Translations under genes and position numbers: made by a program
Shown here: positions 7,734-26,251 of the stretch, in pieces
Layout of the letters: each line of letters opens with the position of its first letter
Numbering within the stretch: the stretch's first letter is position 1
The notes under the pieces: model-generated
Told to the model about the DNA's origin: nothing
The model's input: only the letters and a program-made list of their open reading frames with translations
The model's database searches: none
Assembly: GCA_028287235.1 (NCBI GenBank)
Contig: JAQBQB010000002.1
Location: forward strand, 186,001-250,000
Direction of reading: 5' to 3'
DNA from: Gemmatimonadota bacterium
GTDB lineage: Bacteria; Gemmatimonadota; Gemmatimonadetes; Gemmatimonadales; Gemmatimonadaceae
Length of the DNA stretch: 64,000 bases

Positions 7734-8317
7734 CCTCGGCACCGCAGCGGGTCGTTCAGATTGGTTTGAACGTGTTGGCAGTCGCGACTGTCGTTCTCGG
7801 TGCAGAGAATTGGTACCAGCACGTGCCTTCCTTCATCCCGCTCGTATTCACTGCGATTACCGGATTGAGTGCGGCCTTCGCGGCGCTCGCCTGGTATGCG
7901 ATCACGCAACTTGATAAGTTGAGCCAAGACATCGACACCTTCGGCTTTGGCTTGACGCAACGGGCGTTCGAATACATTCACGGTCGTAGGAACCGCGTAC
8001 TCTACGCCGGGATTGCTTGCACGATCGCCCTCGCTACTAATGCTGCTGTTGCAGCGATCATGGCCAGTGCGGCGAGATATTCGCTGGCTTACAAGTACTG
8101 CTTTGTCCTGGGCGCTGCAGCGACTGCAATCGCATCGTTGGCGGCAGTTCGAATCGTAACCGTCCATTCCAAGCTCCAGACGTTTCGTCGCGACTTGCTT
8201 TCGAGGCTGTTCGCCCAGAAAAAAGCGGCCGAGGTGATCCGTAATATTCGCGCCTCGGATGTATTGTCTGACGTGTCGACTGCGCCGGCTACGCAACTGT
8301 TACCGCACAGAAACTGA
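7730..8317 (+). CDS. Four-helix membrane protein, partner of the upstream gene
   Basis: A 195-residue protein starting at a GTG that overlaps the upstream stop (GTGA). GGAGG at 7721-7725 is the ribosome site. Four hydrophobic segments occur as two hairpins: about residues 6-24 and 31-54, then 87-108 and 116-137. Between the hairpins lies a charged loop (TQLDKLSQDIDTFGFGLTQRAFEYIHGRR), and a basic C-terminal tail follows (FRRDLLSRLFAQKKAAEVIRN). It is probably an inner-membrane protein. Its coupling to an unknown soluble protein at the edge of a defence-like island makes a membrane effector or anchor plausible, but this is inference. No family was recognised. Confidence 0.7.
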   Translation: MTSAPQRVVQIGLNVLAVATVVLGAENWYQHVPSFIPLVFTAITGLSAAFAALAWYAITQLDKLSQDIDTFGFGLTQRAFEYIHGRRNRVLYAGIACTIALATNAAVAAIMASAARYSLAYKYCFVLGAAATAIASLAAVRIVTVHSKLQTFRRDLLSRLFAQKKAAEVIRNIRASDVLSDVSTAPATQLLPHRN

Positions 8318-8362
8318 GCGATTCGCCGACTGCATGTCCGCAGTAGCAGGTGCGTTTACGAC

Positions 8363-8600
8363 CTATGCGACGGCTAGCCTGCTATTTTTCTTACTACCCG
8401 TCGACGACTCTTCCGCGATGTCGTTTGCCAGAGCATCGAACAACGATTGCAGATCAGATTGATCGGGCAAGCCGCGACGAACTGTCCCGACAAGCAGCTT
8501 TTTAGTTCGAGTCTTCTGGCGATGTCGCGCGCGCACTCCACGCTGATCCCCATTTTTTCCCCCAGCGTCATCGCCAGCGCACGCGTTGCCGGGCTACGCA
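8363..8600 (-). pseudogene. C-terminal remnant of an unidentified gene, frameshifted
   Basis: On the - strand, LAMTLGEKMGISVECARDIARR is read in one frame. After a shift at the T5 run (8499-8503) it continues KLLVGTVRRGLPDQSDLQS, then FDALANDIAEESSTG, and ends at TAG (8363-8365). Both halves look like genuine protein with consistent amphipathic character, so this is probably the broken 3' end of a gene. The family is not recognised. The 5' side stops near 8600, where an unrelated remnant on the other strand begins. Confidence 0.45.
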
Positions 8601-8601
8601 C

Positions 8602-8916
8602 GAGGCGACCGCCGCGGAGGACGCTGCGGGAACGACGACGCCGCACGACGATCTGGTCGTGGCGCCGTCCCACGAGGCCGGCGCGCTTGACGACTCGCGC
8701 GCCGTCGAGTACCGGCGCCTTTGAGGAGAGATGATCCGCGCCGAAGGCGCGGAGGTGCTGCGGATGCGAAATAGCGGCGCGATCGGGGACGACGCCATGC
8801 GGCGCATTCCGCGTGATCTCGACTTCGAGTCGATGCTGCTCGAGACGCGCGATCCGGTGACGGAGCCACCGAGCGAAGTGTCGGCGGCGATCGAGGGGAG
8901 AGACGGGGAGGAGTGA
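8602..8916 (+). pseudogene. C-terminal fragment of a CPA1-type Na+/H+ antiporter
   Basis: The frame ending at 8914-8916 reads HDDLVVAPSHEAGALDDSRA, EYRRL, stop, GEMIRAEGAEVLRMRNSGAI, then GDDAMRRIPRDLDFESMLLE. This is the cytoplasmic tail typical of bacterial CPA1 Na+/H+ antiporters, where the region normally runs EYRRLRREMIRAE...GDDAMRRIQRDLDLEE. An in-frame TGA just before GEMIRAE and the absence of the transmembrane body show it is a non-functional scrap. It begins abruptly at about 8602, next to a remnant on the other strand, marking a rearrangement junction. Confidence 0.65.
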
Positions 8917-9215
8917 TCACCGCGGTTCGTGAAACGACCGTTCTGCCGATATCACTTGGGGTTTGCGGCGAATCACCGTCACCAACCAGCCACTCATCGG
9001 CGCCTGCTAAGCGCCTTAGGTCACTGATCAGATTCTGCGACGCGTTTGCTAACCCGCCGAGCTTCCGCCGTACTTGAGCCGCCATGCATCACACGCGGGT
9101 CCGGGAGTTAGATGCCCACCGAACACATCATAGAGCCAAACGAAGCTGACGTCGTCTACAGGTCGCGAAGTCCGACTGTGACCTCGAGACGCCATATTAG
9201 GCACCGGCCTTCGGC
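8917..9215. other. Gap with no supported gene
   Basis: About 300 bases between the antiporter scrap and the next gene. Short open frames on the - strand (for example one reading LISDLRRLAGADEWLVGDG) look partly protein-like but have no clear start or family. I see no promoter or repeat worth naming. Confidence 0.3.
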
Positions 9216-10475
9216 ATGAAGCACCACTTCCCTCTTGCGACACGATGGGCCACCGACCTGATCGCGGCGATTCTACCGCCGTCGCGGGTTACGAACCTCG
9301 ACGTCAGGCACCTGCACCCGATCGCCGGTCTTCTCTACCGAGCGCACATGCTCGCCGGCGAGAGCTTGAATGCCATGCACATCCGAGTGCGGGCGACATA
9401 CAAAATCCTCGAGCGCGGATTCGACGCCCACCCCCAAAGTATGTCGGGCATATACGACAAGGCCTTCACGCAGCTGGATGCGCTCCAGCAGCGTGAGAGC
9501 GCGCTCGCCAGGGCGGCGTGGAACGCCAGTACCCAACAGCCGGACGATCGGTTTGGTTCTTTACTATCGTTATATCAATTCACGTATGAGAGTTATTATC
9601 GCACGCTTGCTGCTCCCGTCGTGGCAGCTGACGCTCTGTCGCGGACAAAGCAGCCGCTGACCGACGTCATCGACTCGGACGGACGCGTCAAGGTCCGAGT
9701 GATGGCCGAAATCGAAGCAGGCCAGCGCCTAAAGGCCGGCCTGCTAACCAATGGCCTGGACAACCACCTGCGCAACGCGAGCGCACACCATCACTATCAC
9801 ATTCTCAGCGACACTTCGATCGAACTCTGGGACGCGAATCCTAGGACCGGTGCCTACTCCTGGGGACCAGTCCGACTTTCGCACGCCGAGCTCTCGCGTC
9901 GCGTGTACGCCCTGACAGTCACTTGTTGCGTCCTGTTGCTAGCCCTCGCGCTGTTTGACATCGCGTACGGAAGGACGATGCGGGCACGCGGCTGGTCGAC
10001 GCTGGGCCCCCAGCGGCCGCGGCGCGATATCGCACTGGCCGAGATGGTCGATGCCGGCGCTCTTCACGGATTCGACGTCATCAAGGTGGACTTCGCGGGT
10101 GGTGATGCGATCGAGGTGGTGCTTCGCGTTCTCGATGAAACGGCGATCGATCAGACCTCAGAGATCCGGACGAGCACGGGTGCACGCTACGCGCGTGAAA
10201 TCAGGACGCACCACGCGCCGCTTCGTCAGCAAGCCTATGGGTTCATCCAGATGTCGCACGGAACCCATATCGCGTTCGCGACACTCCGGCTTCGAATCGT
10301 GGGGCGCGACGGCCAGGAGTCGTTCGGCGAGATCGCCGTGGATCGCAAGGCCCGCGAAGCCATTCTCACTGGCGAGACGACCATCGACGAAGTCGGGTCT
10401 CTGGTGGCAGTCGACACTCTGCCTGACCGAATGATCCCCGTGGTCCATACTGGCATCCCGCTTCGGATCAGATAG
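9216..10475 (+). CDS. Hypothetical protein with a HEPN-type R-x4-H motif
   Basis: A 419-residue protein. Residues 186-191 read RNASAH, inside HLRNASAHHHYHILSD. This matches the R-N-x3-H signature of HEPN-superfamily domains, many of which are metal-independent RNases in toxin-antitoxin, CRISPR and abortive-infection systems. The residues before it (ALQQRESALARAAWN, YQFTYESYYRTLAAPVVAAD) are helical, as a HEPN domain requires. A strongly hydrophobic segment follows at about 231-250 (VYALTVTCCVLLLALALFDI), either a membrane helix or a buried helix. The C-terminal third is beta-rich (VDFAGGDAIEVVLRVLDE; THIAFATLRLRIVGRDG). The gene is upstream of the restriction-modification gene in the same direction, about 240 bases away. 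The motif is seen directly; the HEPN fold and RNase role are inferred. Confidence 0.7.
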   Translation: MKHHFPLATRWATDLIAAILPPSRVTNLDVRHLHPIAGLLYRAHMLAGESLNAMHIRVRATYKILERGFDAHPQSMSGIYDKAFTQLDALQQRESALARAAWNASTQQPDDRFGSLLSLYQFTYESYYRTLAAPVVAADALSRTKQPLTDVIDSDGRVKVRVMAEIEAGQRLKAGLLTNGLDNHLRNASAHHHYHILSDTSIELWDANPRTGAYSWGPVRLSHAELSRRVYALTVTCCVLLLALALFDIAYGRTMRARGWSTLGPQRPRRDIALAEMVDAGALHGFDVIKVDFAGGDAIEVVLRVLDETAIDQTSEIRTSTGARYAREIRTHHAPLRQQAYGFIQMSHGTHIAFATLRLRIVGRDGQESFGEIAVDRKAREAILTGETTIDEVGSLVAVDTLPDRMIPVVHTGIPLRIR

Positions 10476-10714
10476 CCGCCTAGAGGCGACGCATCTTGAA
10501 CGGCGACAGCAGGACCAACTTGTCGCGAACGCGAAATTCCTGCCAGCCTCGTCGGCGTTGTCGCCGGCATTCTGATCAGAATGCGGGTGGCTACGCTAGA
10601 GGAACCGTGATACCGTTCGACAAGCCCGAACCTCGGATGGCATTCGTGGCGCCGCTAGACCGGCGCCCCGGAAGCCCACCGCCACCATCCCTTTCTTGCC
10701 CATCCGCCGAACGC

Positions 10715-13618
10715 ATGCCAGCTCCCGCCGCCGTACTCGAACTCGTGGAGCGTTTTCGTCGCAACCGCGAAGCGTATAAGGATCCGACGTACAACGAAAC
10801 GCAGTTACGGCGGGAGTTTGTTGACCCGCTGTTTGAGGCGCTCGGCTGGGATGTCAACAACCGGCGCGGATACGCCGAGGCATACAAAGACGTCGTTCAC
10901 GAAGACTCCATACGCATCGCCGGGCGGCCAAGAAGCCCCGACTACAGTTTTCGCATCGGCGGCGTCCGGAAGTTCTTCGTTGAGACGAAGAAGCCGGCGG
11001 TGAACGTCCGGACCGACGTCCCGTCCGCCTTCCAGCTTCGTCGGTATGCATGGTCCGCGCACCTGCCGGTGAGCATTCTGACCGACTTCGAGGAATTTGC
11101 CGTCTATGACGCGCGAGCGCGCCCGCGCCTAAACGCGAAAGCATCAGAGGCCAGAATATTTTATATCACCCACGAAGAATATGATGCTGAGTGGGATCGG
11201 CTCATCAATATCTTCTCGCCTGAGGCTATCCGTCGTGGCGAACTAGATCGCTTCGTCAAGGAAGCCGGACGTAAGCGCGGGGCCGATCCGGTGGATGACG
11301 TCTTCCTCGAAGAGATCGAGAATTGGCGCGCTCTCCTGGCCAAGAACATCGCGGCCAGAAATGGAGAGCTTTCGGCCGATGAGGTCAACGTTGCCGTCCA
11401 GATGACCGTCGATCGCATCGTTTTTCTGCGTATCGCGGAAGATCGCGGACTTGAGGACTACGGGCACCTCGCAGAGGCGGCCGAGAAGGACGGGGTCTAC
11501 TCCGCGCTCGGCAAACTCTTTCGCCGTGCGGACGATCGATACAACTCAGGTCTCTTCCACTTCGAGCCCGAGCGAGGTCGGCCCAGCGCGGCTGACACCT
11601 TCACCCTTCGACTGGACATTGACGACAAACCGCTCCGGGACATCATCGGCAGCCTGTACTATCCGGAGAGCCCATATGCGTTCTCGGTTCTTCCGGCTGA
11701 CATTCTCGGACAGGTCTACGAGCGCTTCTTGGGCAAGGTTATCCGCCTTACGCCTGGTCACCGCGCAGTCATCGAGGACAAGCCGGAAGTCCGAAAGGCA
11801 GGCGGCGTCTACTACACTCCCACCTACGTTGTTGACGATATCGTGGGAAGGACACTCGGCCCGCTACTCGCGGATCGCAGGCCAGTTCCGGCAACGAGAG
11901 GTAAGGAGACTGGGGCGAACATTCGGATCGTTGACCCAGCGTGCGGCTCGGGATCGTTTCTCCTCGGAGCGTATCAATTCCTACTCGACTGGCACCTTGA
12001 CTGGTACCTGGCGAACGATCCGGGCAAGTGGGCGCGGCAGCGGCAGCCTAGGTTGGTTCAGGTCAGATCCGATGAGTGGCGTCTAACGATCGACGAACGA
12101 AAGCGAATTCTATTGCAGAGCATCTACGGCGTCGACATCGATGCCCAAGCAGTCGAGGTGACGAAGCTCTCGCTGTTACTAAAAGTGCTTGAGGGAGAAA
12201 CACAGCAGACGGTCCAGACAAATCTTGCCCTCTACAATGGCGAGCGCGCCCTTCCCGACCTCGACGCGAACATTCGCCGCGGTAACTCAATCATCGATGC
12301 CGACTTCTTCTCCGGCCGCCTTGCTCTGGGCGGAGAGGACGATCCCTACTCGCGCATCCGGCCGTTTACTTGGGACGAAGAATTTCCGGCGATTTTCCGA
12401 CGCAAGAACGCCGGGTTCGACGCGGTGATAGGCAACCCGCCGTACGTTCTGATGCAGTCACTGGAAGAACCCATGATCGAGACATACTTGGCCCACAAGT
12501 ACCGGGCGGCTCGGTATAAGATCGATACTTATCATGTCTTTATGGAGCGTGGCATCGATCTACTGAGGGATGGCGGTCGGCTGGGGTACATAACCCCAAG
12601 TTCGTTTCTTCGGAACAAGTTCGCGCGGAACCTCCGCGAAGTAATTCTCGAGAAAACTGAAGTTGACACTCTTCGAGTGTTCAAGTATCCGGTCTTCAGA
12701 GACGCTAGCGTCGACACGTGCGAAACGATCTTAGTGCGACGCATGGCGCCCGCCAGGGATCACCAAGTATCTGTCATCAGCTCACAACTTCCGGAAGACG
12801 TTACTGAAGAGGAAAGCGTACCCCAGAGCGGTTGGGCATCGCATCCTGATAAGCAGTTCGGGCTCGTGGGGGGAGCGATGGCGGATTCACTCGCGGCGGC
12901 GCTGGACCAGAGGTCCATACCGCTTGGCGACTTCGCGACAGCTTACTTCGGGATTCAAACGTTCGCCAGAGAAGCATACGTCACCGACTGGCCGGCCACG
13001 AAGAATCATCGCCCGGTGATCGACGGCGTGAACATCGGACGCTACCGGCTTGCCCCTCCGAAGGAGTTTGTTGACTTTCAGCCGCGTTCGATAAAAAGCG
13101 GTGGCAACGCAGACGTTTATGCTCAAGCGCGAATCGGCGTGCGGCAAATCGGAGAGGTACCAATCGCGACCTTGGTGCCGCCAGGGCTTCTCACACTGAA
13201 CACGATCTACAACGTCTACCTCACCCGAGACGCCGGGTATGACCTGAGATTCGTGCTCGGGGTGATGTCATCGCAGCCAATTCGCTGGTATTGGCGTCAG
13301 GCGAACTTCGATCAAAAGCGCACGTTTCCAAAAATCAAGAAGGACGCCCTACTGGGGATTCCCATACCGCAGTTGGATTTTACCAAGTCTGCTGATCGCG
13401 CGTCTCAGCAAGCGGTCGTCGCCATGGTCGACGAGCTGATAGGCCTGGGCGAGCGGCTCGCGAAGGCAAAGACACCAGATGCAATCGAACTGGTCGAGCG
13501 TCGCGCCAGGCTCGTCGACCGCGAACTCGATGCAGCAGTCGCCAAGCTGTTCGGCTTGTCGAAGACCCAGGTTGAGTTCATGGCGGCAGCGGAACGCCGC
13601 GATGATGTCGCAGCTTAA
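10715..13618 (+). CDS. Type IIG-like restriction endonuclease/DNA methyltransferase fusion
   Basis: A 967-residue single-chain restriction-modification enzyme. The N-terminus holds a type I-R-like nuclease domain: PDYSF (D76) then FFVETKKP (E90, K92), a PD...ExK site. The middle is an N6-adenine methyltransferase with motif I DPACGSGSFLLG (about residue 408) and motif IV GNPPYVLMQ (about residue 574). The C-terminal third (TAYFGIQTFAREAYV, RTFPKIKKDALLGIPIPQ) is the TaqI/Eco57I-type target-recognition region. Such enzymes cut and methylate with one specificity domain and need no separate methylase. The start ATG at 10715 begins the conserved sequence. The open frame extends upstream to 10496, but that stretch is Arg/Pro-rich and unlikely to be translated. 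There is no helicase, so it is not a type I subunit. It is a core defence gene of this island. Confidence 0.88.
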   Translation: MPAPAAVLELVERFRRNREAYKDPTYNETQLRREFVDPLFEALGWDVNNRRGYAEAYKDVVHEDSIRIAGRPRSPDYSFRIGGVRKFFVETKKPAVNVRTDVPSAFQLRRYAWSAHLPVSILTDFEEFAVYDARARPRLNAKASEARIFYITHEEYDAEWDRLINIFSPEAIRRGELDRFVKEAGRKRGADPVDDVFLEEIENWRALLAKNIAARNGELSADEVNVAVQMTVDRIVFLRIAEDRGLEDYGHLAEAAEKDGVYSALGKLFRRADDRYNSGLFHFEPERGRPSAADTFTLRLDIDDKPLRDIIGSLYYPESPYAFSVLPADILGQVYERFLGKVIRLTPGHRAVIEDKPEVRKAGGVYYTPTYVVDDIVGRTLGPLLADRRPVPATRGKETGANIRIVDPACGSGSFLLGAYQFLLDWHLDWYLANDPGKWARQRQPRLVQVRSDEWRLTIDERKRILLQSIYGVDIDAQAVEVTKLSLLLKVLEGETQQTVQTNLALYNGERALPDLDANIRRGNSIIDADFFSGRLALGGEDDPYSRIRPFTWDEEFPAIFRRKNAGFDAVIGNPPYVLMQSLEEPMIETYLAHKYRAARYKIDTYHVFMERGIDLLRDGGRLGYITPSSFLRNKFARNLREVILEKTEVDTLRVFKYPVFRDASVDTCETILVRRMAPARDHQVSVISSQLPEDVTEEESVPQSGWASHPDKQFGLVGGAMADSLAAALDQRSIPLGDFATAYFGIQTFAREAYVTDWPATKNHRPVIDGVNIGRYRLAPPKEFVDFQPRSIKSGGNADVYAQARIGVRQIGEVPIATLVPPGLLTLNTIYNVYLTRDAGYDLRFVLGVMSSQPIRWYWRQANFDQKRTFPKIKKDALLGIPIPQLDFTKSADRASQQAVVAMVDELIGLGERLAKAKTPDAIELVERRARLVDRELDAAVAKLFGLSKTQVEFMAAAERRDDVAA

Positions 13619-13683
13619 CGACCAGGAATGAACGTGTCCCGTTCGATAGTGAAGCACAGTGTCTCTGGGACTCTCGTCGTGAG

Positions 13684-14466
13684 TCATGCCCCCGCGTCGA
13701 CAGCGACAAGACCTAGGTCTTCCCAGCTCTCAGCTCTGCTAACCCGACACACCCGGCAAAGCGCGTAGTTCTCCGGCAACCGGGCGACGGCCCATGCGTG
13801 GGCTATCTCAGTCGGAAACTGAGGCGGAACGTCCGGAAGCATCATGCGGAACATCGCCCCCCAGGCGTCGCTACTTGATTCAATAACGACGAATAGGTGT
13901 GCTTCAGCCGACTGCCGTGCGGCGAGCTTACGACGATTGTCGACCTTCTGGAGCTCTCGCTCGACAGCATCGTTGATGAGCGAACCGTGTACCCAGCCGC
14001 CTGCACCAGGCGGTGCAATACATATCTGACCAGGAGTTTTCCAGCGGATTCGTTGACCAGCCTCGATTCGCAACTCCTTCCAGATTCTGGCCACGCTGGG
14101 GTGGCACGCATCACGCTCGACGAAAAAATCTCCGATTCCCGCAGCTTCGATCTCCGCCAGATACTCATCCACTCTTTCACGTATGCGGCGGATGTTCGCA
14201 TCCTTCGTTGGATCAACCAGCCAGTCGCCCGTGCTCCGACGGGCGTTGATCACCTGGCCGCCACGTCGCTCGTCCATCAACGCGGCCCGCGTTCTGAGCG
14301 CTACCGGGTCAGTTGCACGGGTTACCTCGACTGCAATTTCTGAATTGTCCTCTCGGAAGAGGCGGAAATCGCACTCGCCGTTCGATTGGGTCGCCGCGAA
14401 CTCGATCCTGACATCCGTGAAGAACGCTTCAAGGACACGTTGCGCTAATTCTTCCGCTTCGTTCAT
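13684..14466 (-). CDS. Hypothetical protein with a degenerate nuclease-like D...E-V-T motif
   Basis: A 260-residue protein starting MNEAEELAQRVLEAFF. Near the N-terminus CDFRLFRE (D33) is followed by IAVEVTRATD (E47-V-T49). The spacing resembles PD-(D/E)xK nucleases, but Thr replaces the catalytic Lys, so it could be a nuclease variant or an inactive fold. The remainder is mixed alpha/beta with a Pro/Gly loop (PGQICIAPPGAGGW). It is convergent with the restriction-modification gene (66-base gap) and divergent from the ubiquitin-like operon, so its module membership is unclear. The open frame continues upstream of the ATG at 14466, but that sequence is Arg/Ser/Cys-rich and unlike a protein N-terminus. 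No family recognised. Confidence 0.65.
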   Translation of the reverse strand: MNEAEELAQRVLEAFFTDVRIEFAATQSNGECDFRLFREDNSEIAVEVTRATDPVALRTRAALMDERRGGQVINARRSTGDWLVDPTKDANIRRIRERVDEYLAEIEAAGIGDFFVERDACHPSVARIWKELRIEAGQRIRWKTPGQICIAPPGAGGWVHGSLINDAVERELQKVDNRRKLAARQSAEAHLFVVIESSSDAWGAMFRMMLPDVPPQFPTEIAHAWAVARLPENYALCRVCRVSRAESWEDLGLVAVDAGA

Positions 14467-14869
14467 GGCGCCCGGCCTATTCGGTGTTGCTGCGGAACGG
14501 TGTTGCTGAAGTTCAGTAACGCTCGACGAGACCAGGCGCAGGGTGGTGGGTGAGCCTTTCCCAATCAAGGCGTCACCATCTCGCCCTCGAGACTCGGGCA
14601 TGACGCAGCGCCTGCGTAGTAAGCATCGTTTGGGGCACACCGACGCAGACAGGCGGCTTGCCCGAGTACACCACCGCCCCATCTTAGAGCTAACCGTTTG
14701 CAGCCGTTGTACTTAGGAAAACTTGCTTCCTAACACATGACGATGTAAATTGCGAACCCCAGGTTCCACGAAGCCATCATCGAAGCCCAGGCGTCCGCCC
14801 GGTCCCAGAGATCGCTGACGGGACAGAACGACGGCGCCGCAGCTGACGACGCCGCCGAAAGGCGGTGCG
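14467..14869. other. Divergent intergenic region
   Basis: About 400 bases between two divergent gene starts. It should hold the promoters of the operon to the right and the gene to the left. I see no confident -10/-35 pair, repeat or small gene. Confidence 0.35.
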
Positions 14870-15943
14870 ATGGACGGACTCAAAGGCTTCGCCGAGGTGG
14901 CGAAGCACATTTTATACGAGACGTTCGGGCTTCTCATTCCGGGCGGACTAGGCGCACTTACAGTCGTCGCCGCTGTAGCCCCGTCGTGGCTGGCACTGCT
15001 CCTCGCATTCGCTCGCGCGAATCCATGGCTGGCGCTCGGCGGAGCGTACGTACTCGGCTATCTTGTCCAGGCGCTTTCTCGTCCCGCGAACGCGATCGGC
15101 GAGTGGATTCTTCAGTCGCCCAGCCGCCTGATCGTTCTTGCTGGTCGGCTTGTTCCGGAGCTCGCCCGTCGCGCAGCATCAGCCGTGGCGAGTGTCGATC
15201 ACGCGTTGACCGGACGTCACAAGCACTCACGTGACGACCATCGACCGCGCGCCGACTTCGACGCGATCATCGAGGCCTACTGGAAGCGTCGGCTCGGACT
15301 CGCCGCCGATGCAACGATCTCGGATACGCAGACGAGAAACCTCAGCTTCTCTCAACTCATCGGAGAGCGAGACGGGTTAGATCGGTTTCGCGCAGCGACA
15401 TCGTTGACCCGAGCCGCGAGCGCGCTCGCGGCAATTGTTATGGCAATCCTGCTCGCGCAGGTGCTGCGCGCTGAGCGCGAGCTCACGTGGCAACTCACCG
15501 GTGTTGTCGAGCTGTTGGTGATAGTCTTTTACGGGGCGCTCGAGCGCGCCGACATGTATGACGATCTGTGGCGCTCGTCGCTCAAGTCGCAGTTCCTCTG
15601 CGCCGTTTCAAGAGCCCAACCTCTAGATCCGTACATTGCTCTCGAGGCGCGGGTTGAGCCCGACGCCATAGCAGCTTGCTCTGCGCTGGCACGCACGGAT
15701 GCGGCAACGAGTTCGGTACAACGAACACGTAGCGGTAGTCAGGAGGAGACTTCCCCCAACACGCGGGAAGCGGAGCGAGAGGGGCGCGGTGGAGAGCCGC
15801 CGCCAGATGGTGTCAGCACGCCTTTCGCGAAGTCGCCGACTCCTATTCCCCTCATTCCTACCACTACCCCGGCGCCGCTGGCGCCGCAGGAGAATTCCCG
15901 TGTCTCAGCTCGTCATCAAGTTCCTCAACGTGGGCCAGGGTGA
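14870..15943 (+). CDS. Membrane protein, first gene of the E2-E1/JAMM operon
   Basis: A 357-residue protein of unknown family. It has two hydrophobic hairpins: about residues 20-45 and 50-70 (IPGGLGALTVVAAVAPSWLA; LALGGAYVLGYLVQAL), and about 182-198 and 208-222 (ALAAIVMAILLAQVL; TGVVELLVIVFYGAL). A charged cytosolic loop of roughly 110 residues lies between. The C-terminal ~80 residues are disordered and Ser/Thr/Pro-rich, ending RGPG. It overlaps the start of the metallo-beta-lactamase gene by 44 bases, so the two are co-expressed. In an antiviral system it would be the natural membrane effector or the conjugation target; both are inference. Confidence 0.75.
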   Translation: MDGLKGFAEVAKHILYETFGLLIPGGLGALTVVAAVAPSWLALLLAFARANPWLALGGAYVLGYLVQALSRPANAIGEWILQSPSRLIVLAGRLVPELARRAASAVASVDHALTGRHKHSRDDHRPRADFDAIIEAYWKRRLGLAADATISDTQTRNLSFSQLIGERDGLDRFRAATSLTRAASALAAIVMAILLAQVLRAERELTWQLTGVVELLVIVFYGALERADMYDDLWRSSLKSQFLCAVSRAQPLDPYIALEARVEPDAIAACSALARTDAATSSVQRTRSGSQEETSPNTREAEREGRGGEPPPDGVSTPFAKSPTPIPLIPTTTPAPLAPQENSRVSARHQVPQRGPG

Positions 15944-16940
15944 TTCGACCCACATCGTGTTACCCAACGGCGATCATATGCTCGTCGATATCAACCTCGA
16001 TCCCAAGAGCCGCGGGATCGATGTCATCCAGTATCTCGCCGATCAACTTCCCGATGGTGAGGATTCCCAGCGCCTTGCCTACTTCGTGAACACCCATCCG
16101 CACGACGACCACATTCGTGGATGCGGCCAGCTTGGCAACCAGTTCGAAATCGGCGAGATGTGGGAGTCGGGACACCGACTCGACTGCGACGAGGGCGAGA
16201 ACGAGCAGTATGACAAGTTCATCGCCCTCACCGAAGATATGGAGGAAGACGATGCGCTCTATCAGCCCTGCTCTTCGTCGGAGACGTATGCGGAGATCGA
16301 CGGAGTAACCTTTCACGTCTTTCGCCCGAGCCGTCACGTCCGCCTCGACAAGAACATGACCGCTGAGGAGAAAAAGAATCGCATCCACGACGAGTGCATG
16401 GTGCTGAAGATGAGCTACGCGGGACGCTCCGTCATGATCACCGGTGACAGTCACCTGGATGCGTGGAAGAGTATCATCAAGCATTACGACGACGACCTGC
16501 TCAAGTGCAACGTGCTCCGGTCGAGTCACCACTGTTCTCGTACGTTCTTCAAACAGCGATGTGAAGACGACGAGGCTTGGACCGAGCATCTGGACGTGCT
16601 GGACCCCGACGTCATCGTCGTCTCCGTGGGCTCCGAGAATACTCACGATCACCCCCACGACGACATGCTGGACGAATACGAATCTCGCGTGGGTGTGGAT
16701 AACGTCCTGCGGACAGATGAACGGTTCACCGTCGTCCTCACGATCGACGACGACGGGACGATGACGTGGGAAATGGATGATGAGGATTTCCAGGCCGAGT
16801 ACGAGCTTCCTGAACCGGAAGACGACGGTAACGACGATGGCGGCTCCGGCGCACGGCGCCGTGGCACTGAGGGCGCGCTCGCGACCGCCGCTCGCATCGT
16901 CTCGAAGACTCGGCTTGGCGACAAGAGTCCGACCGCCTAG
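15900..16940 (+). CDS. ComEC/Rec2-like metallo-beta-lactamase-fold hydrolase
   Basis: A 346-residue protein. It starts SQLVIKFLNVGQGDSTHIVL, the entry strand of the ComEC/Rec2-type MBL fold. The metal motif is THPHDDH (H66, H68, D70, H71). Further ligand candidates are in MITGDSHLD and LRSSHHCSRTFF. The C-terminal tail is very acidic (EYELPEPEDDGNDDGG). The GTG at 15900 is preceded by AGGAG at 15888-15892, 7 bases away, which fixes the start. MBL enzymes of this type hydrolyse phosphodiesters or similar bonds in nucleic acids or nucleotides; the substrate here is unknown. It lies between a membrane protein and an E2-E1 fusion, all in one direction with tiny gaps, so it belongs to that module. 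Confidence 0.85.
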   Translation: MSQLVIKFLNVGQGDSTHIVLPNGDHMLVDINLDPKSRGIDVIQYLADQLPDGEDSQRLAYFVNTHPHDDHIRGCGQLGNQFEIGEMWESGHRLDCDEGENEQYDKFIALTEDMEEDDALYQPCSSSETYAEIDGVTFHVFRPSRHVRLDKNMTAEEKKNRIHDECMVLKMSYAGRSVMITGDSHLDAWKSIIKHYDDDLLKCNVLRSSHHCSRTFFKQRCEDDEAWTEHLDVLDPDVIVVSVGSENTHDHPHDDMLDEYESRVGVDNVLRTDERFTVVLTIDDDGTMTWEMDDEDFQAEYELPEPEDDGNDDGGSGARRRGTEGALATAARIVSKTRLGDKSPTA

Positions 16941-16958
16941 TCGGCGAGAGGCGCGCCG

Positions 16959-19046
16959 ATGTCCAGCCGTTTTGGGATGCGCCCGCGAAAGCGGCCGGCC
17001 GCCGCACGGCCGGCCGGCCAAGCCTCGGAGCAAGTTGACACGGCACCAGCACCGGAAGGCGACCCGATCAACGCCCCGGCTGTTCCGTCGCGTGCCTCGT
17101 GGTGGGACCGATTCCGACCGCTATTTCTGCGGGAGATCGCCTCGGCGCGCGAGCTAGGGCTCGTTCCTCGGATCGCTGCGTGGCCTCTCGACGTCGCTGG
17201 AACTCGGACGGTGGAGCGCCTCATCGTGTCGGGCCGGGTGCGCGTGAAGGCTGCACGCCCAGGTGAAGGCGAGAAGTGGTATGGTCTCGATTTCGACTTT
17301 AGCTACCCCACGAACTACCCGTTCGACAAATTGGACGTCCGTCCGTGTGACACACGCATTCGCCGGCGCCGCCATCAAACCGCGAATGGCGATCTCTGCT
17401 TCATGCAGGAGGAGCTTGAACCATGGGCTGTTGGCTATGGAATCGCGCGAGGTGTTGACGGTGCCCGAGCCTTCGTAGCGGCCGAGGTGACGGGAAAGTT
17501 CGCCCATGAGGTACCGGCCGCAGAACTCATCGCCTATCTCCCTCGCGAAACGGCGTACGTCCGCGGCGTTCTCCTTCCACCGCACGCCGTTTGGACGAAA
17601 CCGCCGGCAACGACCGGCACGATGAAGCTCGAGTGGGACAAATGGGGGGAGCAGCCAGCGCTCGCACTGCTTGGCCCGTTTGCCCCCGCAGCCGCCGACC
17701 TTAACGATCGGCCGATGCGGGACACGAACGATCGCCTCTGGGAAGCTCTCCGACTCCGCCAGAATCCCGTACGTCCGAACAAGTACAACGTGGTCGACGG
17801 CCTTTGGTTCGCGCTCGATTCCGAACCCTCCCCGTTCACCGATTTCACGGGGTTCGAGGTGATGCTTTGCCATCACTTGAATTTCACGGCGGACGCTATC
17901 GACAAGCTTCTCGAAGCGGCACTCACGAAGGGAGTTCGCGAGCGCGGCTGGTTCCCGATTGCCCTTAGCTACCCGCGACGCACGACGGGGGCTGGCGCAA
18001 CGGTGGACAGAATTCAGCGCGAGTGGCTCTTCATCAACCTCGAATGGCCCAAGCTCATCGAAGACCGCGTGCGAAAGAATCACCTCCGCGCCACGCTCTT
18101 CCGCCCGCGGCTTGAGGTCCGCGGCGTTCCTTCGTACAGCGTGAGTGCGCAGGACCTAGCACGCCGAGTAGGCCCGATCTACGAACACGATTCTGTCGCG
18201 CGGGCTCGGGTAGTGATTGTCGGACTTGGTGCGCTTGGTTCGACAGTAGCGCGCAGCCTCGCGGCCGCTGGAGTCCGTGATTTTGTGCTCGTTGATCCCG
18301 ATGTCGTCAAGCCAGGCAACGTCGTTCGCCACGAAGGACGCCTACCCGATGTGGGACGGATGAAGGTGCGGGCGATGCATCAAATCCTGCGTGAAACAAA
18401 CCCGCACGTGAGCGTGCAAACGCTGTTGGGAACCCGTGCTGAGTCCGGCGCGTTCGAGACAGTCTTGCTGGATCGCAAGAATCGGCCGGCGCTTGTAGTC
18501 GCGACTGTTGCCCTCAAGGCCGTTGATGGCCAGATCGATGACGTGGCGAGACAAGCTGAGCCGCCGCTACCCGTTCTTCACGCATGGGTTACTGCGCAAG
18601 CCCAGGTAGCGCGCGCCTTCCTGACGATCCCGGGCCGGACAGCTTGTCTATACTGCAACGGTCTCTACGAGAAGGCAGCCGATGGGACGTATATCATCGC
18701 TCCGGATGTCGAGGCCGAACCATTCTTCGAGGCGAGTTGCGTCGATCCGACCTTCCCGGGCGCCGGGAATGCGAATGCGCTAGCTGCCCATGTCATCACT
18801 GAAATGGCCCTCGACATCCTCCACGATCGTCTCGTAGACGAGGAGTCCCACTGGGTGTTCGCGGGCAATCGAGTGGGGACGGTTGCGCCGGGCTACGCTG
18901 TCCCGCCACTCACCGTGGTACGAAGTGGATTCCGCCCGCATCCGGAATGCCCGGTGTGCAGCACACGTGAGCTACTGGGCTCACTCGATGAGACTCTGGA
19001 CGCCCTGTTTCACAAAGAACTGGACCGTCTTCGTGAAACGCCGTAA
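16959..19046 (+). CDS. E2-E1 fusion: ubiquitin-activating-like adenylyltransferase with N-terminal E2-like domain
   Basis: A 695-residue protein. Residues ~50-190 look E2-like. HQTANGDLCF places a Cys (C147) after a His and Gly in the pattern of bacterial E2 domains. Residues ~410-640 are a ThiF/E1 adenylation domain with nucleotide loop VIVGLGALGS (G422-G427). LVDPDVVKPGNVVRHEG and GRMKV supply the Asp, Asn, Arg and Lys of the ATP site. The predicted catalytic E1 cysteine is C594 in EASCVDPTFPGAG. Two CxxC pairs (CLYC 563-566, CPVC 674-677) form a structural zinc site. This layout matches Cap2 of type II CBASS, but there is no CD-NTase gene here. GAGAGG at 16946-16951 precedes the ATG by 7 bases. 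It presumably activates a C-terminus and attaches it to a target. Catalytic cysteines are assigned by pattern only. Confidence 0.88.
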   Translation: MSSRFGMRPRKRPAAARPAGQASEQVDTAPAPEGDPINAPAVPSRASWWDRFRPLFLREIASARELGLVPRIAAWPLDVAGTRTVERLIVSGRVRVKAARPGEGEKWYGLDFDFSYPTNYPFDKLDVRPCDTRIRRRRHQTANGDLCFMQEELEPWAVGYGIARGVDGARAFVAAEVTGKFAHEVPAAELIAYLPRETAYVRGVLLPPHAVWTKPPATTGTMKLEWDKWGEQPALALLGPFAPAAADLNDRPMRDTNDRLWEALRLRQNPVRPNKYNVVDGLWFALDSEPSPFTDFTGFEVMLCHHLNFTADAIDKLLEAALTKGVRERGWFPIALSYPRRTTGAGATVDRIQREWLFINLEWPKLIEDRVRKNHLRATLFRPRLEVRGVPSYSVSAQDLARRVGPIYEHDSVARARVVIVGLGALGSTVARSLAAAGVRDFVLVDPDVVKPGNVVRHEGRLPDVGRMKVRAMHQILRETNPHVSVQTLLGTRAESGAFETVLLDRKNRPALVVATVALKAVDGQIDDVARQAEPPLPVLHAWVTAQAQVARAFLTIPGRTACLYCNGLYEKAADGTYIIAPDVEAEPFFEASCVDPTFPGAGNANALAAHVITEMALDILHDRLVDEESHWVFAGNRVGTVAPGYAVPPLTVVRSGFRPHPECPVCSTRELLGSLDETLDALFHKELDRLRETP

Positions 19047-19737
19047 ATCCCATTCGTCGGACGGTACCCCTGCATACGGGTTCGAGGAACCTGAATCAAC
19101 GGAAGGGGGCGTCACGCCTCAAAGCCGTGGACGCCGGAACGGGTTTGGGTCACGCAATCCAAGGCCGGCGGCGGGAGCGGGGCTGGTCCTACCATCCCAC
19201 CTTGCCCGCGTCTACGCGCTGCGATCTGTTGAACAAACTCTCAAGTCAGAGTCCGAATCGAAGGCTGGCGTCGAGACGGGCGGCGTGCTTGTTGGATTTC
19301 TCGATCACAAGCTCGACGCCGTGGTGGTAACGGCCGCAAGCGGACCGGGCCCCGGAGCGCGTCACAGCGCATTCTCGTTCAACCGCGACCGTGCCTTCTG
19401 TCAGGCGTTTATCGATCGGCACGCAGCGGAATCGGCGGGTTGTATCGACTTCGTCGGTGAGTGGCACAAGCATCCGGAGCCGAATCCGTGGCCGAGCCCA
19501 ACCGACTGCTCGACCTACGTGAAGTTGGCAATCGATGCCAACTCCCATGTCGATCGACCTGTCGTCCTCATATCCGGCACGACTCGCACGCGGGAAATCG
19601 GCTGGCGCTGGGTCGAAGCGTACGTTGGAGTGAACGCGTTCGTCTTTCGTGCCCACGGATTCGAACAACGGCCCATTCGATGGCTGCCTGACGAAGCGTA
19701 TGACGATCTCATAGCGCATGGTGTTGACGTCGAGTGA
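19033..19737 (+). CDS. JAB1/MPN/Mov34 (JAMM) metalloprotease, deubiquitinase-like
   Basis: A 234-residue protein with a complete JAMM zinc-peptidase signature. Glu is in VETGGVLVG (E81). The motif H-x-H-x7-S-x2-D is in EWHKHPEPNPWPSPTD (H145, H147, S155, D158). The first ~50 residues are disordered and basic. The GTG at 19033 is chosen because it gives a 14-base overlap with the E2-E1 stop; the open frame extends further upstream only as a shadow of that gene. JAMM proteins such as Cap3 of CBASS cleave isopeptide bonds after a conjugated C-terminus. Next to an E2-E1 fusion it is expected to process or reverse the conjugation. It is the last gene of the operon. Confidence 0.88.
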   Translation: MKRRKSHSSDGTPAYGFEEPESTEGGVTPQSRGRRNGFGSRNPRPAAGAGLVLPSHLARVYALRSVEQTLKSESESKAGVETGGVLVGFLDHKLDAVVVTAASGPGPGARHSAFSFNRDRAFCQAFIDRHAAESAGCIDFVGEWHKHPEPNPWPSPTDCSTYVKLAIDANSHVDRPVVLISGTTRTREIGWRWVEAYVGVNAFVFRAHGFEQRPIRWLPDEAYDDLIAHGVDVE

Positions 19738-22625: not shown

Positions 22626-23258
22626 CTATTGGTTTCGACTTCCCCGCAACCACAGCGCCTCATCGACCTGAGCGAGCGTGATCTCGGTACCAGCAATCGC
22701 GTCCTTGAACAACGCTGCGAGACGATCAGGATCCGGCTCTTGAACGCCCGCCGACTCCGCTGCGCCCCAGATATGCCTGTCGATGGCGATTGCATCGTGC
22801 CCGAGCTGGAGACGCATGAAGGACGCGGTCTTCGGACCGACGCCGAACACCGCGCGGAGCTTGTCGATCGCGTCCGGACGAATGACCCAGGTCGCGAGCT
22901 CGTGGATCGTCTCCACACCCTCATCGCGCAGGAGATCGGCGAGACCCCAGATCGTAGCACACTTCCTGAGGTTGGCGATGTTCAGAAACGCTTGAGGCCC
23001 GCTTGCTCGCAGCACGGATCTCAACCCCGACGTCACCGACGCTTGCGGACAATCGCTAATGATGCGCTTTACACGGGGCGCGACGATGGCGTTGTAGTTT
23101 ACTCCACTCTGTAGAGTCGCGTCCGCGAGCACCGCACCTACGTGGGCACTTCCGAGGCTCGCGCAGCTCCAACGTTCTGTCGACTTCGGCAGATCCAGAG
23201 TACGTATGAGCGCGGCGAGGGAGCGAACCTGTTCCGGTCGAGAGACAGAAGCGGGCAT
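22626..23258 (-). CDS. HhH-GPD superfamily DNA glycosylase-like protein
   Basis: A 210-residue protein, last gene of a five-gene operon. The helix-hairpin-helix is LRAVFGVGPKTASFM (G139-A145). The conserved Asp of the HhH-GPD family is in AIAIDRHIWGAA (D160). K143 in the hairpin is at or near the position used by bifunctional glycosylase/lyases, but alignment is needed to confirm. There is no iron-sulphur Cys cluster at the C-terminus. HhH-GPD enzymes flip out and excise damaged or modified bases. It starts 14 bases after the stop of the upstream gene, with GGAG about 7 bases before the ATG. The neighbours (a UDG-like protein and nuclease-like proteins) suggest attack on modified DNA rather than housekeeping repair. 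Confidence 0.8.
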   Translation of the reverse strand: MPASVSRPEQVRSLAALIRTLDLPKSTERWSCASLGSAHVGAVLADATLQSGVNYNAIVAPRVKRIISDCPQASVTSGLRSVLRASGPQAFLNIANLRKCATIWGLADLLRDEGVETIHELATWVIRPDAIDKLRAVFGVGPKTASFMRLQLGHDAIAIDRHIWGAAESAGVQEPDPDRLAALFKDAIAGTEITLAQVDEALWLRGSRNQ

Positions 23259-23272
23259 TGATTACTCCAGGT

Positions 23273-24130
23273 TCAAGTGACTCTTAGTCGTACTCGTTTG
23301 AACAAGAGTCTGGTTGCGCTATACTCAACAACGCCGTCCGACGACTCTGAGACCCGGCGGTTCCGGGGGCTAGGCTGGCGTCGGAGAGAAGCTTCAGCTT
23401 CCGGCCGCTCCTCTTGCGAGTACGAATAAGTCCACTCCTCGGACGATTCCAAGTCGTCGAAGTCCTCGGCATCCGCAAACCTGAGAAAGTGTGTCCACAC
23501 GCTGGCATACCGCTCACGATACTTCTTGGCGAAGAATGCAAGCACCCTCGGATCTCCGCCCCATGTCTGCCAGTCCGTCTTCGGGATGAAAAAGTAGTTA
23601 CACGGATGAATGTTCCTGACGAATCGTCGCGTAATGTCGGCGGTGTCCCACCGGGCGAAGTCAGTGTTGCCGTCTTTGACTGGAAAGATGTGCGCGACAT
23701 GCCATCCCGCCGCGCTCGCGGTTGGCGCACACATCTTCGCCACCTCGAACATGTGGGTCGGCATCGTCTCGATCACGGCTCGAAATGACGAAGCTTCGAT
23801 TTCCCCGCCATGGAATAGCGCCGCGTGAAGCCACCACGCCGGCGCATTGTCCGTCGCCCGAAAACGACTGCCGTCACAAGCCTTGTAGTCGCACCCTCTC
23901 ACGGTGCCTCGAACTGCGCGAACCAACGCCAGCGGGTCCGTGGAGTCTAAGTAGCTCGCGAAGGCGCGATGGAAGCGCTCGAGCACACCGGGCTCGATGA
24001 GTGTGCGAGCGGCGTGATTCGTGAAAAACGACTCGAGCGTCCCGTCGAATCGGCTTGGGCTTGGCGCCAATTGATTTGCAGACGAGACCAATCGCTTCGC
24101 GTCCGCGGCAATCCGCAACAGCACAGTCAA
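23273..24130 (-). CDS. Putative HNH-like nuclease protein
   Basis: A 285-residue protein that begins at a TTG overlapping the stop of the upstream gene (TTGA). The centre reads GWHVAHIFPVKDGNTDF (H144, H147, D153, N155), then FVRNIHPCNYFFIPK (N173, H175, N178). This resembles an HNH/treble-clef-type site with His-Asn-His spacing, but it is not a textbook match. The N-terminal 120 residues are helical (LESFFTNHAARTLIEPGVLE). The C-terminal 60 residues are acidic then Arg-rich and probably disordered. Its place between glycosylase-like genes would fit a strand-cleaving role. Family assignment is tentative. Confidence 0.6.
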   Translation of the reverse strand: MTVLLRIAADAKRLVSSANQLAPSPSRFDGTLESFFTNHAARTLIEPGVLERFHRAFASYLDSTDPLALVRAVRGTVRGCDYKACDGSRFRATDNAPAWWLHAALFHGGEIEASSFRAVIETMPTHMFEVAKMCAPTASAAGWHVAHIFPVKDGNTDFARWDTADITRRFVRNIHPCNYFFIPKTDWQTWGGDPRVLAFFAKKYRERYASVWTHFLRFADAEDFDDLESSEEWTYSYSQEERPEAEASLRRQPSPRNRRVSESSDGVVEYSATRLLFKRVRLRVT

Positions 24131-24834
24131 TTGCTCAAGCTGCGCCGCACCCGCTGCCAGTCAGTCAACTGCTGCGTGAGCGGTCGCAGCGTGTTCTGAA
24201 TTCTCGCGCCGCAATGATAGACCGCGAGGAGTGTCGTAATACGCCCCTCTGTCGGCAGGGCGATTCCTTCTAAAGACTCGACCGCGCGTTTGTACGGACC
24301 AGCGTGTCGCGGCAGCCCATAGGCACCGAGCACGCAACCGTGCGCACGCGCCCCGAGGGCGACGATGACTCGCGGCTGCACGAGATCAACCTGCGCGCGC
24401 AGAAGAGTCATCGAGTCCTCGCCAAACCACTCAGTCCTGACTGGCGCCGACATTCCGCCGGATTTCAGCCAGAGCGAGGCGTTTGTCAGCCAGACACCGC
24501 ATGACGACCTTCTTTCGTCGCGCGCGTCGGTAGCTGCGGGTGGTGGCGGAATCGGCCGGCCGATGCTTTCAAGCAGCTTTCGAAGCGCCTCGTTGGTGGG
24601 GTTCCCTGGCGCATCGAAACCTTTGTTCTTCTCGAAGTACGCGACGTCTCCCCAGTCTTGGCCCACAACCATGAGGTCCGCTTCGAGGTCGTGTGCCCAC
24701 ACTGTCCATGGCCCGATGTGGTCGGAGTCGAAGCGTCCGCCACCAACAACGGAGGGATTCTCCAGAGCAAACGGCGTTGGATCGTACGCCTTCCGCTCGG
24801 CCACTAACTCGGAGTAGCGGACGGATCGAGTCAT
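24127..24834 (-). CDS. Uracil-DNA glycosylase superfamily protein
   Basis: A 235-residue protein of the UDG superfamily by motif order. ADLMVVGQDWGD (58-62) is motif A. GVWLTNASLW (N118) fits the Asn-containing segment. PRVIVALGARAHGCVLG is the central strand and helix. LLAVYHCGARIQN (H207) takes the place of the usual motif B H-P-S. The Trp after GQD, where many families have P-x, and YHCG instead of HPS suggest altered base specificity. It overlaps both neighbours by four bases. UDG-like enzymes excise uracil or modified bases; in this operon a role against phage DNA is inferred, not shown. Confidence 0.75.
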   Translation of the reverse strand: MTRSVRYSELVAERKAYDPTPFALENPSVVGGGRFDSDHIGPWTVWAHDLEADLMVVGQDWGDVAYFEKNKGFDAPGNPTNEALRKLLESIGRPIPPPPAATDARDERRSSCGVWLTNASLWLKSGGMSAPVRTEWFGEDSMTLLRAQVDLVQPRVIVALGARAHGCVLGAYGLPRHAGPYKRAVESLEGIALPTEGRITTLLAVYHCGARIQNTLRPLTQQLTDWQRVRRSLSN

Positions 24835-25514
24835 GCTGTGATCACAGCGTCGATGCCGAATGCGTCGAGCTCCGGAACCTTCGGGATGCGGGACGAGCTC
24901 CCACTAAGAACTCTTCTGGCAGTCCAAAGCATGGCAAGTGAGTCGAGTACGTCCGACGTCAGGCTGGAAGGCCACGCTCCGGCGAGACCTGCCGCGTCAC
25001 ACCCGAGGTTCGTCGCGAGCAGCCTCACTCGCGCCGCTCGGCCATCCGCCTCGTGTTTCGAGACGGAAAGCGCCGTGCCTCCATTCATAAGTGCGAACGA
25101 CACCTCAGGGTGTCCTTCCATAATCCGACCAGAGGCAACGCCACCCGAGCGCACCAACTTGTCGACTTCCACAATCTTCGGAACGAGTGCGAATCCCTGT
25201 TTGCTGCAACCTTTGCCTTCGACGGACCGCCCAATTTCGTTGGCCTGGGAATAGTCTGTCGCCGCAAGCACTGGTCGGATCGGGGCGTTGAAAACGCAGG
25301 AAGCACGGTGACCGAGGAGCTGCCGGGCTTCGCGGTCGGCGGCACGGACACCGCGGTCGAGCAATCCGATCGGAATATCGATTACAGCGAGCTCGAGGTC
25401 CTGGTCCGCGATCAGGTCCGCGACGGATGGAACGACAGAGATGCGCAGCTGACCGTCACCATAATCTTTCGCAACCATCCATCCCGCTGAACAACCGTCG
25501 ACGCCGGCGATCAT
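24831..25514 (-). CDS. DUF429 (predicted RNase H-like nuclease) protein
   Basis: A 227-residue protein that matches DUF429. It has the opening strand IAGVDGCSAGWMVA (D6), then AVIDIPIGL (D46), an arginine-rich helix ADREARQLLG, CVFNAPIRPVL, KIVEVDKL and MEGHPEVSFAL (E133-E137). The Asp/Asp/Glu arrangement is that of an RNase H-like fold, and DUF429 is predicted to be a nuclease, without experimental proof known to me. ATGA overlaps with both neighbours show strict co-translation. It is second in the operon. Confidence 0.82.
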   Translation of the reverse strand: MIAGVDGCSAGWMVAKDYGDGQLRISVVPSVADLIADQDLELAVIDIPIGLLDRGVRAADREARQLLGHRASCVFNAPIRPVLAATDYSQANEIGRSVEGKGCSKQGFALVPKIVEVDKLVRSGGVASGRIMEGHPEVSFALMNGGTALSVSKHEADGRAARVRLLATNLGCDAAGLAGAWPSSLTSDVLDSLAMLWTARRVLSGSSSRIPKVPELDAFGIDAVITA

Positions 25515-26251
25515 GAGACTTGGGCAGCGGAGGCCGGTTGTGAGCTCGCCGCCTCGTCTGCCAACGCGGCCAACGGAGCCGCATCCACGAATATCTTGTG
25601 CGAGAATTTTCCAAGCTTATGGCGGCCGAGCCCGAGGTAGCATTCGACAACCTTGATTGCCGCCTCCCACTCCTTTTGTTCAGTTGGGCCGCCCACGTCA
25701 GTCGCATTTGTGAAGTAAACGTTCACTAGATGGGCGCGGATCCCATTCTGCTGTCGCAGAAAATGCAGGTGGGCGATTCGGTTCGTGTATTGGTAAAAGG
25801 TATTCGTCCAATCGACCGATCCCACGGACTTTGGCGCAAGATCCTGCTGAACCTCCCGAATACTCTTGAGGATTCGACCTTTCGCCGGCTCAGACGCGCG
25901 TGTCCGAGGCGAGACGATCTCCGGAATGTGCGCCTTGGCCTCGACGAGCAAGTAATCGCTTGTGGACGTCTTGGCGAGGCCGTCCCACATCGGACCACCG
26001 GACGGCCAGAAGTCGGGCAGTGAGCGTTTAGGCAGCGCGACGTTGAACCTCGTAAAGGTTGCGGAATCGCGGTATTCAACGAACCTCTCAGTTCGTAGGG
26101 GCGATAACCATTCGATCTGCGTCGATGCAGAAAGCTTTAGCGCGGATTTGATCGGCGTGTCCAGCAGCTCGGGAGCACGGTCCACGGCTACTTGCAGCCA
26201 GCGTTGACTGCCTTTCGAGGCGAACTGCCGTGCTGACGGGCTTGGGGGCAT
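25511..26251 (-). CDS. PD-(D/E)xK-like nuclease, first gene of the glycosylase operon
   Basis: A 246-residue protein. MWDGLAKT (D90) followed by YLLVEAKAHIPEI (E104, K106) gives a PD-(D/E)xK nuclease-type site on paired strands. The remainder includes FYQYTNRIAHLHFLRQQ and ECYLGLGRHKLGKFS, a layout seen in uncharacterised restriction-like proteins. The ATG at 26251 is chosen over the longer open frame (to 26413) because GGAGA lies about 8 bases upstream and the extension is Arg-rich. It overlaps the DUF429 gene by four bases. It presumably cleaves DNA at or near sites processed by its operon partners. Confidence 0.75.
   Translation of the reverse strand: MPPSPSARQFASKGSQRWLQVAVDRAPELLDTPIKSALKLSASTQIEWLSPLRTERFVEYRDSATFTRFNVALPKRSLPDFWPSGGPMWDGLAKTSTSDYLLVEAKAHIPEIVSPRTRASEPAKGRILKSIREVQQDLAPKSVGSVDWTNTFYQYTNRIAHLHFLRQQNGIRAHLVNVYFTNATDVGGPTEQKEWEAAIKVVECYLGLGRHKLGKFSHKIFVDAAPLAALADEAASSQPASAAQVS

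What the first reader, a model, noticed from the sequence alone, without database searches (positions are those of the whole stretch)
22626..26251. Five-gene coupled operon of glycosylase-like and nuclease-like proteins: a base-excision-style defence cassette
PD-(D/E)xK-like nuclease, DUF429, UDG-like, possible HNH-like and HhH-GPD-like genes are in one direction. Three successive four-base overlaps are followed by a 14-base gap. Two different DNA glycosylase folds plus two or three nuclease-like folds in one transcript is not a known repair operon. It fits a system that recognises modified or uracil-containing phage DNA, removes the base and cuts the site. The UDG-like protein has GQDWG and YHCG in place of common motifs, which suggests unusual base specificity. 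The precedent is Brig1-type glycosylase defence, but I know of no described system with this combination.
Basis: partly seen in the sequence, partly recalled or inferred. Interest (0 to 1): 0.88.

Follow-up and report, generated by a model that had tools for sequence, protein, structure and literature searches.

The report
Glycosylase–nuclease gene cluster in defence island
A Gemmatimonadaceae bacterium carries five tightly packed genes for two DNA-base-removing enzymes and three probable nucleases beside known antiviral genes; the five are not found together elsewhere in these searches, but two of them (a uracil-glycosylase relative and a DUF429 nuclease) recur as a pair, which points to a possible new way of attacking foreign DNA.

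Summary
The five genes are real, co-directional and tightly packed on the minus strand (26251–22626). Fold calls mostly hold. [quoted passage not shown] P5 is an HhH glycosylase with invariant Lys and Asp. P2 is DUF429. P1 carries a conserved PD-(D/E)xK-type motif. P4 is only tentatively HNH-like. The genes lie in a low-GC island with a type IIG restriction gene and an E2/E1–JAB operon, and four other UDG-superfamily genes exist in the genome, so housekeeping repair is unlikely.

The five-gene set was found nowhere else, so 'one conserved system' is not supported. P4 relatives mostly pair with Schlafen-type helicases, some P5 relatives with QueC/deoxyribosyltransferase genes, and P1 relatives stand alone. 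What recurs is DUF429 next to a UDG: in G095 (4-base overlap, dissimilar DUF429) and in G329 (different subfamilies). That is 2 of 37 other DUF429 genomes against 0.05–0.14 expected (P 0.001–0.008). 'Unusual base specificity' is not supported: GQDW and HCG are family-wide and Brig1's Asn→Glu change is absent. Best reading: a defence-island operon built on a DUF429–UDG core plus opportunistic neighbours.

The parts
25511..26251 (-). P1: PD-(D/E)xK-motif protein, 246 aa
   Evidence: ORF; relatives in 4 same-family genomes and an Azospirillum plasmid; invariant E59, W89-D90, E104-A-K106 in the alignment; no Pfam hit. Relatives are not next to DUF429/UDG/HhH genes.
24831..25514 (-). P2: DUF429 (PF04250), RNase H-like superfamily, 227 aa; ATGA overlap with P1
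   Evidence: Pfam E 2.3e-50; RNase H-like clade D with RuvC-type resolvases, predicted active nuclease (PMC3985635)
24127..24834 (-). P3: UDG-superfamily glycosylase, 235 aa, family-4 fold without the Fe-S cysteines; ATGA overlap with P2
   Evidence: Pfam E 9.3e-9; relatives in 13 loci; AlphaFold pLDDT 90.6; best fold match S. tokodaii family-4 UDG, Z 19.2, rmsd 2.9 over 185 residues; D60, N118 invariant, H207 near-invariant
23273..24130 (-). P4: unknown protein with a possible HNH/His-Me-like motif (GWHVAHIF...HPCN); probable start GTG 24124; lacks a C-terminal domain of about 60 aa found in relatives
   Evidence: 39-45% identical relatives in 4 same-family genomes; invariant H147, N178; no known family; single-sequence fold uninformative
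22626..23258 (-). P5: HhH-GPD-type glycosylase/AP-lyase-like protein, 210 aa, no Fe-S loop; 14 bases after P4
   Evidence: PADLOC OGG E 9.2e-5; family profile to OGG/AP lyase 9o00 E 2e-4; invariant K143 and D160 in the 10-sequence alignment
6621..19737 (+). Neighbouring defence-type genes in the same low-GC stretch (type IIG restriction-modification 10496-13618; MBL-fold, E2/E1-type and JAB proteins 15789-19737)
   Evidence: Pfam and PADLOC; GC 0.56-0.63 over most of 6-28 kb (one 2-kb step at 0.665) against 0.63-0.69 elsewhere

Best explanation
This is an accessory operon in a defence-rich island of a Gemmatimonadaceae genome. Its core is a DUF429–UDG pair. Proposed mechanism: P3, an Fe–S-free member of a sparse, mobile subfamily of family-4-fold uracil-DNA glycosylases, removes a uracil-type base (uracil or a 5-modified uracil) from incoming or replicating phage DNA and leaves abasic sites. 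DUF429, an RNase H/RuvC-like nuclease, and perhaps P5's AP-lyase activity then break the strand there. P1 and P4 are further nuclease-like genes joined to the transcript, either extending the same system or acting as independent small defence genes that use the same promoter. Shown here: genes, packing, folds and motifs, island context, and recurrence of the DUF429–UDG neighbourhood. Inferred: substrate, the order of reactions, antiviral role, and cooperation of the five products.
For: Translational packing and coding signal. Defence-type neighbours and lowered GC. Four further UDG-superfamily genes in the same genome (95–144 bits against 36 for P3), so P3 is unlikely to be the housekeeping repair enzyme. 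P3 fold Z 19.2 to family-4 UDG, with D60 and N118 invariant and H207 near-invariant. The subfamily is patchy: 2 clear carriers in 395 genomes of the phylum, yet found in several other bacterial phyla, an archaeon, an SPbeta-like phage and a predicted viral contig. DUF429 sits directly upstream of the UDG in G095, with a GTGA overlap. The two DUF429s show no BLAST similarity although the UDGs are 54% identical, which suggests independent pairing. A third DUF429/UDG neighbourhood of other subfamilies lies in G329, 176 bases apart. Two of 37 other DUF429 genomes against 0.05–0.14 expected, P 0.001–0.008. P5 keeps the Lys+Asp of bifunctional glycosylase/lyases. Precedent: UDG-superfamily Brig1 and the Brig3–BapA operon (PMC11078745, PMC13160076).
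Against: Nothing here measures activity. Of 11 other genomes with this UDG subfamily that were searched, 9 have no DUF429 and in the other 2 no pairing with the UDG was seen, so the UDG does not need it. The pair statistic rests on two cases. One (G095) was found through the UDG itself, and in the other (G329) both family matches are only modestly above their cut-offs (UDG 24.7 against 24.3 bits, DUF429 31.4 against 23). Five-gene synteny was seen once.
Confidence: 0.42

Rival explanations
1. Chance co-transcription in a defence island: several independent one- or two-gene accessory modules (P1; DUF429-UDG; P4; P5) were inserted side by side and share a promoter, without a common pathway.
For: P1 relatives lack the other four as neighbours. 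P4 relatives pair with SLFN-g3 helicases in 3 of 5 loci. P5 relatives are the third gene of nucleoside-deoxyribosyltransferase-QueC operons in 3 plasmid-collection records and are without recognisable partners in others. The five-gene set was found once.
Against: Four-base overlaps between P1, P2 and P3 suggest established translational coupling, and DUF429-UDG recurs.
Confidence: 0.38
2. A DNA-repair operon: base excision of deaminated or oxidised bases (UDG plus OGG-like lyase) with associated nucleases, useful to the host rather than antiviral.
For: Both glycosylases keep residues expected for repair-type chemistry, and two DUF429 genes lie near photolyase-like genes (one annotated; one read from its sequence).
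Against: Four other UDG-superfamily genes are in the genome; P3 and P1 are absent from the same-genus genomes searched; the cluster sits among restriction and E1/JAB genes; the UDG subfamily is rare and also carried by phages.
Confidence: 0.13
3. A fragment or derivative of a QueC/7-deazaguanine-type immune operon, with P5 the relict OGG component.
For: P5 matches PADLOC OGG, and its relatives sit beside QueC and PfkB/deoxyribosyltransferase genes.
Against: No QueC, TGT, deoxyribosyltransferase or CD-NTase was recognised among the neighbours tested. P5's catalytic residues are intact and it is packed into a different operon.
Confidence: 0.05

Closest known systems
Brig1 (UDG-superfamily alpha-glucosyl-hmC DNA glycosylase, PMC11078745)
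   Same: UDG superfamily; best fold match is the same S. tokodaii family-4 UDG; located in a defence island
   Different: P3 keeps the uracil-reading Asn (N118) where Brig1 uses Glu147; P3 is packed with DUF429 and nuclease-like genes, whereas Brig1 alone suffices. Direct sequence comparison not done.
Brig3-BapA operon (5hmC glycosylase plus glucosyl hydrolase, PMC13160076)
   Same: A UDG-superfamily glycosylase working with an operon partner in a defence island
   Different: The partner is a sugar hydrolase, not a nuclease; no DUF429 or HhH gene was found in the passages read
Family-4 uracil-DNA glycosylases (S. tokodaii 4zbx/4zby, T. maritima 1vk2)
   Same: Fold (Z 17.6-19.2), Asn of the recognition motif, His of motif 2, position of Fe-S ligands in most relatives of P3
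   Different: P3 and its G095 relative have lost all four Fe-S cysteines; motif 1 is GQDW rather than a GExPG-type motif
OGG-like third gene of QueC / PfkB-deoxyribosyltransferase operons (QueC cluster 4 of PMC13329287; PADLOC 'OGG')
   Same: P5 belongs to this protein family (28-33% identity, invariant K and D)
   Different: No QueC or deoxyribosyltransferase beside P5 in the window
DUF429 (PF04250)
   Same: P2 is a clear member, with the first-strand and later acidic positions kept
   Different: Most DUF429 genes examined here are not next to a glycosylase gene

Membership tests
Family-4 uracil-DNA glycosylase (P3) | UDG alpha/beta fold closest to family 4 | tested here: met
   pLDDT 90.6; Z 19.2 to 4zbx; profile E 2e-9
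Family-4 uracil-DNA glycosylase (P3) | Four Fe-S cysteine ligands | tested here: not met
   Cys present in 8 relatives; replaced at all four positions in P3 and L004
UDG superfamily (P3) | Catalytic acid in motif 1, recognition Asn, His in motif 2 | tested here: met
   D60, N118 and H207 conserved across the subfamily; N118 = StoUDG N82 in the profile alignment
Brig1-type defence glycosylase (P3) | Glu in place of the recognition Asn (E147) | tested here: not met
   P3 has Asn118 (residue roles from PMC11078745)
Brig1-type defence glycosylase (P3) | Excision of a modified phage base that gives immunity | not testable with these tools
   Needs enzyme and plaque assays
HhH-GPD glycosylase / AP lyase (P5) | Helix-hairpin-helix with catalytic Lys and Asp | tested here: met
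   GVGPK (K143) and D160 invariant in the 10-sequence alignment; profile hit to OGG/AP lyase
Type IV CBASS / QueC-type operon | QueC-like and TGT or deoxyribosyltransferase partners beside the OGG gene | tested here: not met
   None among the operon and island proteins scanned
DUF429 (P2) | PF04250 above the gathering score | tested here: met
   171.7 bits against a 23-bit cut-off
PD-(D/E)xK nuclease superfamily (P1) | Conserved D...ExK core in the right fold | tested here: inconclusive
   D90/E104/K106 invariant; no Pfam hit; fold not predicted
HNH / His-Me finger nuclease (P4) | Beta-beta-alpha metal finger with catalytic His and Asn | tested here: inconclusive
   H147 and N178 invariant; no profile hit; single-sequence model unusable
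Conserved five-gene system | The five families together in other genomes | tested here: not met
   Not found in the neighbourhoods of P3, P4, P5 or P1 relatives

The most novel reading that the evidence does not exclude
A base-excision restriction system: a glycosylase and a DUF429 RNase H-like nuclease form a functional pair that strips a uracil-type base from phage DNA and cuts at the abasic site. In this genome the pair is extended by an OGG-like AP lyase and two more nucleases into a five-enzyme pathway. DUF429 would gain its first function.
Probability: 0.2. Interest if true: 0.82.

Novelty: new variant of a known kind. Interest (0 to 1): 0.45.

Why it matters
DUF429 is a widespread family for which I found no established function. 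A recurring link to glycosylases would make that function directly testable, and would extend glycosylase defence (Brig1, Brig3) from stand-alone base removal to removal plus cutting.

Tried and rejected
Unusual specificity from GQDWG/YHCG: rejected, the motifs are subfamily-wide and Asn118 is kept. Housekeeping UDG: rejected as unlikely. Conserved five-gene operon: not found. A DUF429-like ORF near the P4 relative in L030 (8600–9607): not accepted (no DUF429 Pfam hit; hhalign probability 24%). Viral-collection scans with P3 alone, P5 and the P4 alignment gave no relatives; the P3-family alignment gave one. Plasmid scans with P3, P4, P1 and P5 gave few or no close hits. The single-sequence model of P4 was useless. 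Literature searches for DUF429 with UDG, and for HhH-GPD glycosylases in defence islands, returned nothing. Searches centred on other carriers' families could not be run. Brig proteins did not appear among the listed PDB sequence or fold matches of P3, so no direct comparison was made. The genome-contig scan used only two short peptide patterns, so P3 relatives lacking them were missed.

Full report
What is there. The window holds five minus-strand genes between 26251 and 22626. P1 and P2, and P2 and P3, overlap by ATGA. P4 begins either at the TTG that overlaps P3's stop or, as alignment with its homologue in L030 suggests, at the GTG two codons on, leaving a 2-base gap. P5 follows P4 after 14 bases. 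All five show coding-type codon-position GC. The stretch lies in a mostly lower-GC region (6–28 kb) that also encodes a type IIG restriction-modification enzyme and an MBL, E2/E1-type and JAB gene set. The host family is Gemmatimonadaceae: the same-family genome G095 corresponds to a public Gemmatimonadaceae contig.

What the proteins are. P2 is DUF429, placed in the RNase H-like superfamily with RuvC-type resolvases (PMC3985635). P3 is a UDG-superfamily protein. A 12-sequence alignment gave a confident model whose best match is the family-4 UDG of Sulfolobus tokodaii, Z 19.2. The family profile aligns P3 N118 with StoUDG N82, the uracil-reading residue that Brig1 replaces by Glu. D60 and H207 are also kept across the subfamily. 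Eight relatives keep the four Fe–S cysteines; P3 and its nearest relative in G095 have lost all four. P5 is an HhH protein with the Lys and Asp of bifunctional glycosylases invariant in its family. P1 has a conserved D...ExK motif. P4 remains unassigned beyond an invariant His and Asn.

Distribution. The P3 subfamily is sparse: 2 clear carriers in 395 sampled genomes of the phylum, with scattered carriers in Actinomycetota, Planctomycetota, Bacillota, Bacteroidota, Myxococcota, an archaeon and others, a predicted viral contig and Bacillus phage SPR. The window's genome has four other UDG-superfamily genes.

Do the genes belong together? Not as a set of five. P1 relatives lack the partners. P4 relatives are followed by SLFN-g3 helicases in three of five loci. 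P5 relatives are the third gene after a PfkB/deoxyribosyltransferase and a QueC in three plasmid-collection records; a QueC group of that kind is described in PMC13329287. But DUF429 next to a UDG recurs. In G095, the only other clear carrier found in the phylum, DUF429 directly precedes the UDG with a GTGA overlap. The two DUF429s are not detectably similar by BLAST while the UDGs are 54% identical, which suggests separate pairing events. In G329 a different, Cys-bearing UDG-superfamily gene lies 176 bases before a different DUF429 gene. In 37 DUF429-bearing genomes other than this one, with 83 UDG-superfamily genes, 0.05–0.14 such neighbours are expected and two were seen, P 0.001–0.008. Two cautions apply: G095 was first met through the UDG, and G329's UDG match is barely above the cut-off. 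Of 11 other genomes with this UDG subfamily, 9 lack DUF429 and the other two have one that was not seen paired with the UDG.

Verdict. The claim of one conserved five-gene cassette is not supported; a smaller DUF429–UDG association is. The most likely mechanism is base removal by P3 followed by strand breakage by DUF429 and possibly P5, aimed at foreign DNA. That sequence of events is inferred, not shown.

Noticed in passing
window 14870-19737: Membrane protein, MBL-fold protein, E2/E1-type ThiF protein and JAB protein in one direction: a ubiquitin-like conjugation operon with no CD-NTase recognised among the neighbours scanned.
   Followed up: partly
window 21866-22542: Degenerate 21/42-base tandem repeats (consensus with CACCAACGAAGAG) directly downstream of the operon, function unknown.
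   Followed up: no
L029 4557-7665, L031 4730-7969, L032 3027-5441: P4 relatives are followed by an SLFN-g3 helicase in the same direction in three same-family genomes: a candidate two-gene defence module.
   Followed up: partly
L038 2925-5549, L039 2943-5540, L056 1942-4543: Three-gene operon PfkB/nucleoside deoxyribosyltransferase - QueC - OGG-like glycosylase in three plasmid-collection records; the third gene is the P5 family.
   Followed up: partly
L113 5796-8098: A UDG-superfamily protein with cysteines and an altered motif 1, followed by a DUF429 protein with a long N-terminal extension (G329).
   Followed up: partly
L012 3716-7188: In Paenibacillus naphthalenovorans the UDG relative is followed about 34 bases later by a protein with an EIDISIF...AIELK (PD-(D/E)xK-like) motif, and further on by a PLD-ResIII helicase.
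   Followed up: partly
L081 4980-5636: The SPbeta-like Bacillus phage SPR carries a P3 relative (spr_108).
   Followed up: no
L066 4935-5696 and L067 around 5041-5637: Two P1-family copies with identical match scores in genome G109, flanked by repeated short ORFs (LECPQQKHTL / VCFCC) that may be cassette-type recombination sites.
   Followed up: no
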